Part shown: positions 14,156 to 20,792 of the stretch, piece by piece
Position numbering within the stretch: the first letter of the stretch is position 1
Layout: each line of letters opens with the position of its first letter
Assembly: GCA_020848615.1 (NCBI GenBank)
Contig: JADLHW010000019.1
Span: forward strand, 1-59,162
Reading direction: 5' to 3'
DNA length: 59,162 nucleotides
Source: Thermoleophilia bacterium
GTDB lineage: Bacteria; Actinomycetota; Thermoleophilia; Miltoncostaeales; Miltoncostaeaceae
The notes under the pieces: generated by a model
Database searches by the model: none
Seen by the model: the letters and a program-made list of their open reading frames with translations, nothing else
What the model was told of the DNA's origin: nothing
Translations under genes and position numbers: made by a program

Positions 14156-15154
14156 ATGCCGGACCCCTCCTCCAGGCTGTCGATCCACGTCGCGGACCCG
14201 GGTTACGGCCCCGGCCTCGACGCCTCCGAGATGGACGCCGCCGACGTGCGCACCGACGTCGAGCCGGTGGCCTGGGCGCCCCTGCGCCCGCGGGCCCGCC
14301 CGGCGGGCGAGCTGCTGTTCATCGACGGCGCCCAGCAGATCGAGGCGTGGCTCACCGTGTCGCAGGCCGACGACCCGCGGCCGCTGGCGGGCGTGGCGTT
14401 CGCGGTGGCCGCCGGTGCGGTGCGGGCCGGACACGGCGACCGCGCCGAGGTGGTCGACCTGCACGTGCGGCGCGCGGCGATCTGCGAGGGCGACCGCTGC
14501 CTGCACCTCCCGCCCGCCGGGGCGTTCCGGTGGGACCCGCGGGCCGGCTCCGGCCGCGACCCGTTCGCCCTGGCCCGCCGCGTCGGGCAGATGCGCGGCG
14601 AGCTGGAGCTGCAGCTCGCCGAGCGGTGGGCCTCCCCGGAGCGGCTCATCGTGCTCGACGGGCGCCTCAGCTTCGTGCGCGACACGCACGGCCCCGTGGT
14701 GGGCGCCGTGAAGTCGCACCACCGCATCTACCTGGAGGGCGAGTACGGCATGGTGGTGTCGCGCTTGGCGGTGGGCGAGCGCACCCCGCTGTTCGCGATC
14801 GGCGAGGACCGGTTGTCCTGGTACCAGCGCCTGCCCGGTGTGGGCGAGGGCGGCTGGGCCGGCATCCTGCGCGGCGAGGCGCCGCGCGCCCTGGGCCTGG
14901 AGGCCGCCCGCACGCTGGCCGACCGCGCCACGGCGGAGCTGCCCCGGTACGCCGGCCGCCCGCACCGCGACCCGCGGGCCCCGCAGAACATGGTGCCCAT
15001 CATGACCCTCGAGGGCCGGTTGCGGCACCGCATGGGCGACCGCAAGCTCGCGCTGCGCGCCGTGCGCCAGGCCGCGGCGGGAGCATGGCTGGAGGACGCG
15101 GCGCCCGACGCCGCACCGCTGCCCGTCCCGGCGGCCCTCACCGCCGCCGCATGA
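14156..15154 (+). CDS. nurA: NurA-domain nuclease
   Basis: 332 residues. NurA is the 5'-3' nuclease that works with HerA in DNA end resection. Visible motifs: Asp57 in LLFIDGAQQ (first metal-binding Asp), Asp168 in ERLIVLDGRLSF (second), GAVKSHHRIYL after it, and a C-terminal region with RDPRAPQNMVPI and LEGRLRHRMGD that I associate with bacterial NurA proteins. The neighbouring HerA, SbcD and SbcC genes support the assignment strongly. Start: the ATG directly after a TACAGT box; an upstream in-frame ATG at 14051 would run through the promoter. The stop overlaps the HerA ATG (ATGA). Confidence 0.82.
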   Translation: MPDPSSRLSIHVADPGYGPGLDASEMDAADVRTDVEPVAWAPLRPRARPAGELLFIDGAQQIEAWLTVSQADDPRPLAGVAFAVAAGAVRAGHGDRAEVVDLHVRRAAICEGDRCLHLPPAGAFRWDPRAGSGRDPFALARRVGQMRGELELQLAERWASPERLIVLDGRLSFVRDTHGPVVGAVKSHHRIYLEGEYGMVVSRLAVGERTPLFAIGEDRLSWYQRLPGVGEGGWAGILRGEAPRALGLEAARTLADRATAELPRYAGRPHRDPRAPQNMVPIMTLEGRLRHRMGDRKLALRAVRQAAAGAWLEDAAPDAAPLPVPAALTAAA

Positions 15155-18078: not shown

Positions 18079-20792
18079 GGCCGCTGGAGCTGGAGCTGGT
18101 CGCGTTCCGCTCGTACGAGCACGAGGTGGTGGACTGGCGCCCCCATGACCTGGTGGTGATCGCCGGGGACACCGGGGCCGGCAAGACCTCGCTGCTGGAC
18201 GCCATCGCGTTCGTCCTATTCGGTAAGACCCCCGAGCACGGACGCCCCCGCGACCTGCTCACCCTGGGGCACACCCACGGCGAGGTGCGGCTCACGTTCG
18301 CCCTGCGGGACCAGGTGTGGCGCGCCACCCGGCGGTACGGCAAGGACGCGCCGGACCCCGCCCAGCTGCTGGAGCGGCTCGAACGGGACGGCGGGGACGT
18401 CACCGAGACGCACGCCGACCGCGTGGACGAGCGCCTGCGGGAGCTGGTGGGCATGAGCTTCGAGGCGTTCACCAGCGCCGTCCTGCTGGCCCAGGGGCGG
18501 TTCGCCCAGTTCCTGGGCGCCCAGCCGCGCGACCGGGACGGCATCCTGCGGGAGCTGTTCTCGGTGGCGTCGATGGACGGCGCCCGGCAGGCGGCGCAGC
18601 GGCGCCAGAGCACGCTGGAGGGCGAGGCCCAGGGCGTCGCGCAGGCCGCCGCCGGACTGCCCGGCCACGCCCCGGCCGTCCGGGCCGCGGCGGCGCGGGC
18701 GGCGCGGTCGGCGGCGGCCGCGGCCGCGGTCCTCCGGGCGCTGCGCCCGCTGGCGGAACGGGCCGAGGCGCTGCGCGAGGCCGCCGCGCGTGCGGCGGCG
18801 ACGGCGGAGGCCACGCGGCGCGCCGCGGCCACGCTGCCCGCGGCGGCCGACCGGGACGCGCTGCGCACCCGCCTGGGGTCCGCGCGCGCGGCGGTCGCCG
18901 CGGCCGAGGCCGAGCGCGACGCCGCGACGCGCGACCGGGACACGGCGGCGGCGGGACGCGAGATGCTCCGGATGCGCCACGGCGGAGCGGCCGCCGACCT
19001 GGCCGCCCTGGGCGAGGTCGCCGCCCGGATCCGGGAGATCGAGGCCGAGCTGCCGGAACGCCGGCGTGCCGCCGGGGCCGCCGGCGCGGAGATCGCGGGC
19101 CGACGCGAGGGACTGGAGCGCCTGGTCGCGGAGGGCACCGAGACCGCCGCCGGGCTCGCGACCGCCGCCGCGGAGCTCGAGGGCCTGCGCGGCGCGAGGT
19201 CCGCGGCGTCCGCCGCGGAGGCGGCGCGGGACGCCGTCGAGGCGGCCGACGCCGCTCGCGACACGGCGATCGCCGCCCACGACGCCGCGGCGGCCCAGCG
19301 ACGGGAGGCGCAGGCCGCCCTGGAGGCCGCGATGCGCCGCGACGCGGCACTGGCCGTGCGCGCCGGGCTGGCACCCGGCGACCCGTGCCCGGTGTGCGGC
19401 GGCGCGGTGGGCGACCACCCGCCGGAGGAGGCGGGCGACCTCCTCGCCCTCCGCGCGGCCGCCGACGCCGCCGCCTCGCGGGAGCGGGGCACCGGCGGCG
19501 CCCGTGCCGCGGCGGTGGCCGACGCCGACCGGGCCCGTGCCGCCCTGCACGACGCCGATGCCGCGCTGGCACGGGCCGGCGCCGTGCCGGACGACGCCGC
19601 GCTGAGCGCCGCACAGGAGCGGGTGACGGCCCTGCAGGCCCACCTCGACGAGCAGCGGGCCCTGCACCAGGCGGAGGCCACGGCCATCGCGGGACGGGAG
19701 GGCGCGCTGGGCGAGGAGCTGCGCCGCATCGACGGCGACGGGGCCCGCCTGGAGGACGACCGTCGCCGCCTCGGGGCGTGGGGGGCCGAGGCCGACGCCG
19801 GTGCCGCGCTCTCCGCCGCGGTCTCGGAGCTGCGGGAGGCCGAGGGCGACGCGGACGCCGCCGCGGGGCGCGCCGCAACGGCCGATCGGCGCGCCGCCGA
19901 GGCCCTTCAGGCGGTGCACGCGGTGGAGGCGGGCGAGGTCGGCGCGCTGCGCTCCGCGACGGCCCGCGTCGCCGCCGCGACGGGGCTGCCGGCGCCCGCA
20001 GACGACCTGGACGCGGAGGGCCTGCTGGACGCGTGCGGCGCCCTCGCCGCGGCGGCCGACCGGGCCGCGGCGGACCTCGACGATGCCACGGTCGCCGCCG
20101 TCGCGGCCACCGGGGAGACAGAGGACGAGCTGGTCGCGCGCGGCGGGGTCCTGGGTGTCACCGACGCGGCGTCGCTGCCCGCCGCGCTGCGCGCCTCTGA
20201 GCGCGCCCGCGGCGAGGCCCGCCAGCACCTGGCCGCCGTGGAGGCGGCGGCGGGCGAGGCGTCCCGGCTGCGCGCCATCGAGGCGTCCGCGCGCGCCGAG
20301 GCGGGGCTGTTCGCCACCGTCGCCAGGGACCTGCAGGCCAACGGCTTCCCGCGCTACCTGCTGGGGCGCTACCGGGAGCGGCTGGCCGCCGGGGCATCCG
20401 CCCGCTTGCAGGAGCTGTCGGCGGGCGCGTACCGCTTCTCCGGCAAGGAGCCCGACCCCCTGGCGGTGCTCGACCTGCGCCGCGGGGAACGCGCCCGATC
20501 GGCGTCCACGCTCAGCGGCGGCGAGCGCTTCCTGGCGAGCCTGGCGTTGGCCCTGGGCCTGTCGGACATCGCCGCCGAATCCGGCGGCCGACTGGATTGC
20601 CTGTTCCTGGACGAGGGCTTCTCCACCCTCGACGCGGAGTCCCTGGAGCAGGCCCTCGCCGGCGTGGAGCGCCTCGCCGGGGAGGGGCGGCTCATCGCCG
20701 TCATCACCCACCTGCCCGGCGTCGCGGAACGCCTGGGGTCGGTGATCCGCGTCGCCAAGGACGCGTCCGGGGCGAGCCGCGTCGTGGACTAG
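18075..20792 (+). CDS. sbcC: Exonuclease subunit SbcC (Rad50 family ATPase)
   Basis: 905 residues, shorter than E. coli SbcC (about 1050). N-terminal ABC half with Walker A AGDTGAGKTSLLDAI near residue 35 and Q-loop region VLLAQGRFAQFL; long Ala/Arg/Glu-rich coiled coil; zinc hook Cys438-Pro-Val-Cys441; second coiled coil; C-terminal half with ABC signature LSGGERFLASLAL and Walker B CLFLDEGFSTLD. All functional elements of an SMC-like Rad50 are present. Unusually high Ala content of the coil reflects base composition. Last gene of the nurA-herA-sbcD-sbcC operon, coupled to sbcD by ATGA. Confidence 0.95.
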   Translation: MRPLELELVAFRSYEHEVVDWRPHDLVVIAGDTGAGKTSLLDAIAFVLFGKTPEHGRPRDLLTLGHTHGEVRLTFALRDQVWRATRRYGKDAPDPAQLLERLERDGGDVTETHADRVDERLRELVGMSFEAFTSAVLLAQGRFAQFLGAQPRDRDGILRELFSVASMDGARQAAQRRQSTLEGEAQGVAQAAAGLPGHAPAVRAAAARAARSAAAAAAVLRALRPLAERAEALREAAARAAATAEATRRAAATLPAAADRDALRTRLGSARAAVAAAEAERDAATRDRDTAAAGREMLRMRHGGAAADLAALGEVAARIREIEAELPERRRAAGAAGAEIAGRREGLERLVAEGTETAAGLATAAAELEGLRGARSAASAAEAARDAVEAADAARDTAIAAHDAAAAQRREAQAALEAAMRRDAALAVRAGLAPGDPCPVCGGAVGDHPPEEAGDLLALRAAADAAASRERGTGGARAAAVADADRARAALHDADAALARAGAVPDDAALSAAQERVTALQAHLDEQRALHQAEATAIAGREGALGEELRRIDGDGARLEDDRRRLGAWGAEADAGAALSAAVSELREAEGDADAAAGRAATADRRAAEALQAVHAVEAGEVGALRSATARVAAATGLPAPADDLDAEGLLDACGALAAAADRAAADLDDATVAAVAATGETEDELVARGGVLGVTDAASLPAALRASERARGEARQHLAAVEAAAGEASRLRAIEASARAEAGLFATVARDLQANGFPRYLLGRYRERLAAGASARLQELSAGAYRFSGKEPDPLAVLDLRRGERARSASTLSGGERFLASLALALGLSDIAAESGGRLDCLFLDEGFSTLDAESLEQALAGVERLAGEGRLIAVITHLPGVAERLGSVIRVAKDASGASRVVD

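What the first reader, a model, noticed from the sequence alone, without database searches (positions are those of the whole stretch)
14156..20792. NurA-HerA-SbcD-SbcC four-gene DNA-end resection operon in a bacterium
Seen: four overlapping or abutting genes encode a NurA nuclease, a HerA ATPase, Mre11-type SbcD and Rad50-type SbcC. In archaea these four proteins act together and are often one operon; bacterial HerA-NurA pairs are rarer and are usually not joined to sbcCD as far as I know. The operon has one leaderless-type promoter. This suggests an archaeal-style resection pathway working beside or in place of RecBCD/AdnAB.
Basis: partly seen in the sequence, partly recalled or inferred. Interest (0 to 1): 0.7.

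Follow-up and report, generated by a model that had tools for sequence, protein, structure and literature searches.

The report
Bacterial NurA–HerA–SbcD–SbcC DNA-end-processing operon
Four joined genes in this actinobacterium encode a DNA motor, its nuclease and a break-sensing nuclease pair that probably trim broken DNA ends; the set-up is real but known, shared with many relatives, and works alongside the usual bacterial machine rather than replacing it.

Summary
At 14156-20792 (+) four genes overlap or abut: NurA, HerA, SbcD and SbcC. HerA and NurA are not detected by Pfam or NCBIfam. They match the solved Deinococcus radiodurans NurA-HerA complex (HerA E=1.4e-105, NurA profile E=1.8e-53), and the mapped catalytic, Walker and DNA-contact residues are all kept. 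(1) The cluster is not rare: a HerA of this family is in 107 of 396 sampled Actinomycetota genomes, and 41 of 43 loci with enough flank carry all four genes, as N-H-D-C or H-D-C-N. It is also in Chloroflexota, and was noted in Oceanithermus in 2017. (2) HerA and NurA are of the bacterial type; archaeal structures score at background. (3) This genome also encodes an AddAB/AdnAB-type helicase-nuclease pair, so nothing is replaced here. The four proteins have near-parallel trees, so the quartet seems to travel as a unit. Most likely role: end binding and clearing by SbcCD, then HerA-driven 5'-strand resection by NurA, beside AddAB/AdnAB. A new member of a known kind; mechanism inferred.

The parts
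14144..14149 (+). TACAGT -10-like element ending 6 nt before the NurA ATG; probable leaderless promoter
   Evidence: Read from the sequence; TACA(G/T)T at the same place in L220, L053, L054 and L055. Not shown experimentally.
14156..15154 (+). nurA: bacterial NurA nuclease, 332 aa; D57, K186, R274 match drNurA D53, K201, R309
   Evidence: 7f6d_H 2.7e-17; profile 1.8e-53; TM1739 7.8e-22; residue mapping; 9 of 14 family members hit Pfam NurA
15151..16908 (+). herA: bacterial HerA hexameric DNA translocase, 585 aa; Walker A GVATKT (K166/T167), Walker B LDEL (D457/E458)
   Evidence: 7f6d_B 1.4e-105; residue conservation with drHerA K175/T176, D220, D487/E488, R495, R552
16909..18078 (+). sbcD: Mre11-type nuclease, 389 aa
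   Evidence: Metallophos, SbcD_C; TIGR00619 4e-41
18075..20792 (+). sbcC: Rad50-type ATPase with zinc-hook-like motif CPVC, 905 aa
   Evidence: AAA_23, SbcC_Walker_B; TIGR00618 2.2e-60; CPVC read in the translation
13266..14093 (-). divergent DsbA-like thioredoxin gene bounding the operon upstream (not part of it)
20998..21666 (-). convergent YbaK-type tRNA-editing gene bounding the operon downstream (not part of it)

Best explanation
A four-gene operon for processing DNA double-strand ends. SbcCD (Rad50-Mre11 type) binds the end and opens or clears blocked or hairpin ends. A HerA hexamer then pumps the duplex into a NurA dimer, which digests the 5' strand and leaves a 3' tail for RecA. It acts as an accessory route beside the AddAB/AdnAB-type enzyme encoded elsewhere in the same genome. 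Shown here: gene identities, intact catalytic motifs, conserved clustering, parallel gene histories and the presence of the AddAB/AdnAB-type pair. Taken from work on relatives: HerA-driven 5' resection (D. radiodurans) and a physical Rad50-Mre11-HerA complex (Sulfolobus). Inferred: that the four proteins work together in this organism, and in that order.
For: Close match to the solved drNurA-HerA complex with catalytic and pore residues kept. All four genes overlap or abut. Of loci with enough flank, 41/43 phylum loci, 46/50 named loci and 12/12 extra loci have all four genes together in one of two orders (some named loci repeat phylum loci). Pairwise tree-distance correlations of the four proteins are 0.93-0.965, against at most 0.33 in shuffles. 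The HerA and SbcD trees both place the window apart from the copies of family member G321 and, for SbcD, of G142 and G393. AddAB/AdnAB-type pair present. drNurA-HerA digests the 5' tail during translocation (PMC9960219); Rad50, Mre11 and HerA co-precipitate in Sulfolobus (PMC2288612). Flanking genes of 33 loci are mostly housekeeping, two of them Ku.
Against: Biochemistry of relatives is mixed: drNurA-HerA resects weakly in vitro and its deletion improves tolerance to mitomycin C and high-dose UV (PMC9960219); T. kodakarensis HerA-NurA was argued not to act in end resection (PMC12977600). No experiment exists for this organism. Tree correlation includes shared species history.
Confidence: 0.7

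Rival explanations
1. The quartet mainly destroys foreign linear DNA (phage, plasmid). HerA-NurA degrades both strands of ends that SbcCD recognises, and repair is secondary.
For: T. kodakarensis authors favour an antiviral role (PMC12977600). A quartet-like cluster on a Streptomyces plasmid sits next to DUF2397/TIGR02678/TIGR02680 genes, which I recognise from memory as Wadjet-type. A quartet-like cluster lies on a conjugative cyanobacterial plasmid. Single DISARM-type and AbiEii-type hits among flanking genes. Patchy presence in the class, 13/300.
Against: Flanks of most chromosomal quartets, this one included, are housekeeping genes. No strong PADLOC match to NurA or HerA. Kept in 27/29 sampled Rubrobacter-family genomes, unlike typical defence islands.
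Confidence: 0.15
2. NurA-HerA and SbcCD share only a transcript: SbcCD cleaves hairpins at replication forks, while HerA-NurA does end resection or attenuates it, without working as one machine.
For: Gene order is swapped between N-H-D-C and H-D-C-N, and Eremiobacterota loci have NurA-HerA with no SbcCD nearby. Five genomes of the same class have SbcD with no HerA match. D. radiodurans deletion improves damage tolerance (PMC9960219).
Against: Near-parallel trees and clustering in most loci. Direct Rad50-Mre11-HerA contact in Sulfolobus (PMC2288612).
Confidence: 0.15

Closest known systems
D. radiodurans NurA-HerA complex (PDB 7f6d, 7wrw, 7wrx; PMC9960219)
   Same: Same HerA/NurA type, full-length match, same catalytic and DNA-contact residues; nurA and herA treated as an operon there.
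   Different: The window's pair is joined to sbcD-sbcC, and its genome also has an AddAB/AdnAB-type pair.
Oceanithermus profundus nurA-hepA-sbcD-sbcC cluster (PMC5448004)
   Same: As described there, SbcD and SbcC homologues lie downstream of hepA, giving the same make-up in a bacterium.
   Different: Different phylum; not compared at sequence level here.
Archaeal herA-mre11-rad50-nurA operon (Sulfolobus; PMC4351679, PMC2288612)
   Same: Same four functions in one operon.
   Different: Archaeal HerA scores at background with the bacterial profile (4d2i E=0.15) and no archaeal NurA is found; the archaeal genes are essential in S. islandicus.
AddAB / AdnAB / RecBCD helicase-nucleases
   Same: Same general job: end resection for RecA.
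   Different: Unrelated proteins; an AddAB/AdnAB-type pair is present separately on contig C86.

Membership tests
Bacterial HerA (D. radiodurans type) | Full-length homology to drHerA | tested here: met
   7f6d_B E=1.4e-105 over residues 7-576
Bacterial HerA (D. radiodurans type) | Walker A K/T, Walker B D/E, D220, pore residues R495 and R552 | tested here: met
   All aligned and identical
Bacterial HerA (D. radiodurans type) | Hexameric DNA-dependent ATPase | not testable with these tools
   Needs protein
NurA nuclease | NurA homology | tested here: met
   Profile E=1.8e-53 to drNurA, 7.8e-22 to TmNurA. Window protein alone misses Pfam NurA, but 9 of 14 family members hit it
NurA nuclease | Key residues D53/K201/R309 of drNurA | tested here: met
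   D57/K186/R274; invariant in the 14-member alignment
SbcCD | SbcD metallophosphoesterase plus SbcC ABC ATPase, adjacent | tested here: met
   (SbcC is below the curated cut-off of TIGR00618; AAA_23 and SbcC_Walker_B are over theirs)
Archaeal-type HerA/NurA | Closer to archaeal than to bacterial HerA/NurA | tested here: not met
   Archaeal HerA 4d2i E=0.15; no archaeal NurA up to E=10
End-resection pathway replacing RecBCD/AddAB/AdnAB | Genome lacks these enzymes | tested here: not met
   Adjacent PDDEXK protein (938 aa frame) and UvrD+PDDEXK protein (1114 aa frame) on C86; no RecC

The most novel reading that the evidence does not exclude
NurA-HerA-SbcCD is a co-inherited, sometimes plasmid-borne bacterial end-processing module, widespread in Actinomycetota and Chloroflexota but overlooked because Pfam and NCBIfam miss its HerA and NurA. 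In Rubrobacter it is the main resection enzyme in place of AddAB/AdnAB/RecBCD.
Probability: 0.35. Interest if true: 0.55.

Novelty: new member of a known kind. Interest (0 to 1): 0.32.

Why it matters
Recent papers describe bacterial NurA-HerA as confined to a few groups such as Deinococcus-Thermus (PMC9960219, PMC12977600). The survey here finds a HerA of this type in about a quarter of sampled Actinomycetota genomes, usually joined to NurA and SbcCD and missed by standard domain libraries. Culturable hosts such as Micromonospora and Rubrobacter would allow a direct test of whether NurA-HerA and SbcCD form one bacterial resection machine.

Tried and rejected
A DUF87 (PF01935) search of the own genome found four other places and not this HerA; two of them (L019, L022) are a different HerA-like family with Pfam HerA_C. 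Pfam, NCBIfam and PADLOC give no usable name for NurA or HerA. A PF12705-absence versus HerA-presence association across the phylum (16 of 107 HerA+ against 14 of 289 HerA- genomes lack PF12705, my count) is driven almost wholly by one family, so it is not used as independent evidence. The 2004 NAR paper tried by DOI is not held, so earlier reports of bacterial quartets could not be checked there. The D. radiodurans branch in the HerA tree is long and its place unsure. Structure prediction was not run, because sequence profiles and residue mapping settled the identities.

Full report
What is there. The window (contig C19 of a 3.64 Mb, 96% complete genome) carries on the + strand nurA 14156-15154, herA 15151-16908, sbcD 16909-18078 and sbcC 18075-20792, joined by two ATGA overlaps and one direct abutment. 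A DsbA-like gene diverges upstream and a YbaK-type gene converges downstream, so the four genes stand alone as a unit. The nearest named records are a 'Thermoleophilia bacterium' MAG and an 'Actinomycetota bacterium' MAG, at about 80% HerA identity.

Identities. Pfam finds nothing in NurA or HerA, and NCBIfam only a chance-level EssC hit. Against solved structures HerA matches D. radiodurans HerA over nearly its whole length (E=1.4e-105) and NurA matches its partner (2.7e-17; 1.8e-53 with a 14-member profile). The residues that Yang et al. (PMC9960219) mapped or mutated are identical: HerA K175/T176, D220, D487/E488, R495 and R552, and NurA D53, K201 and R309. SbcD and SbcC are recognised by NCBIfam and Pfam.

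Not archaeal in sequence. The HerA profile gives archaeal HerA 4d2i E=0.15, and the NurA profile finds no archaeal NurA even at E=10. The analogy with the archaeal operon is one of gene content, not close kinship.

Not rare. This HerA type is found in 107 of 396 Actinomycetota genomes (the weakest are Rubrobacter-family members at 30-38% identity over part of the protein) but in only 13 of 300 of the window's class. Where the flanks are long enough, 41 of 43 phylum loci have all four genes: 28 as NurA-HerA-SbcD-SbcC and 13 as HerA-SbcD-SbcC-NurA. Named loci give 46 of 50 and extra loci 12 of 12. The named loci include Acidimicrobiia, Micromonosporaceae and Chloroflexota. A conjugative cyanobacterial plasmid carries what reads as the same N-H-D-C set, with the first two genes annotated as hypothetical proteins (the NurA identity is inferred from position). 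A Streptomyces plasmid carries HerA, SbcD, an SMC-family ATPase and a hypothetical gene in the H-D-C-N order (the last inferred to be NurA). The bacterial arrangement was already noted for Oceanithermus profundus (PMC5448004).

Travels as a unit. In 76 loci the distance matrices of the four protein trees correlate at 0.93-0.965 (shuffled at most 0.33). This includes shared species history. However, the window's HerA groups with an Acidimicrobiia/Chloroflexota set, though with support of only 85, while family member G321 sits elsewhere (starred, 97). In the SbcD tree the window's small clade is likewise separate from the family's G321, G142 and G393, which group together (starred, 98). All five HerA+ family genomes tested have their only detected SbcD next to HerA; among 20 HerA- genomes of the class, five have an SbcD match. 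Acquisition of the quartet as a block is the simplest reading. It is inference.

Not a replacement here. The genome has adjacent frames on C86 for a PDDEXK protein and for a UvrD-plus-PDDEXK protein scoring best to AddA (3.2e-69, below the equivalog cut-off), both with nuclease motifs and the second with a Walker A motif. I call it AddAB/AdnAB-type without choosing between the two. A further UvrD-PDDEXK protein is on C44. No RecC was found.

A place where replacement may hold. Family f18 includes Rubrobacter radiotolerans and R. tropicus (identified through their plasmids). Of 29 sampled genomes, 27 have the diverged HerA, and the seven loci fetched with full flanks carry all four genes (L112, L209-L213, L215). 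By my reading, 23 of 29 show no AddAB/AdnAB-type pair and no RecC, only a UvrD/PcrA-type helicase and in some a weak nuclease-domain hit. These include G041 and G011, each a single contig. R. radiotolerans itself (G053) has both. This is one clade, so in effect one or few events.

Mechanism. From the Deinococcus and Sulfolobus work, the likely sequence is end binding and clearing by SbcCD, then HerA translocation feeding NurA, which removes the 5' strand. Contradictory results in Deinococcus and T. kodakarensis (PMC9960219, PMC12977600) keep the confidence moderate. The defence rival is kept alive by plasmid-borne copies but is weakened by the mostly housekeeping flanks of chromosomal quartets.

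Verdict. Real, correctly identified, ordinary in kind; the widespread and poorly annotated distribution is the part worth keeping.

Noticed in passing
Family f18 genomes: L112, L209-L213, L215: Rubrobacter-family genomes keep a diverged NurA-HerA-SbcD-SbcC cluster, while about 23 of 29 sampled show no AddAB/AdnAB-type pair and no RecC.
   Followed up: partly
L078 and L216 (Euzebya pacifica, G371): Two separate HerA quartets in one genome, one N-H-D-C and one H-D-C-N, of different HerA lineages; the genome also has RecC.
   Followed up: partly
L223 (Streptomyces sp. BB1-1-1 plasmid) 1-16447: HerA-SbcD-SMC ATPase-hypothetical cluster next to DUF2397/TIGR02678/TIGR02680 genes (Wadjet-type by memory).
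   Followed up: no
L224 (Sphaerospermopsis kisseleviana plasmid) 6946-13946: Quartet-like hypothetical-hypothetical-sbcD-sbcC set on a conjugative cyanobacterial plasmid.
   Followed up: no
L222 (G113 C5): HerA is in pieces, with two TGA stops inside one match, although SbcD, SbcC and NurA are present in the same locus.
   Followed up: no
L019 5057-6622 and L022 1-1320 (window's genome): Two further HerA-like ATPases with Pfam HerA_C, of another family.
   Followed up: partly
Pfam and NCBIfam libraries; The bacterial HerA family is missed by Pfam DUF87 and by NCBIfam; public records call it 'ATP-binding protein' or 'hypothetical protein'.
   Followed up: yes
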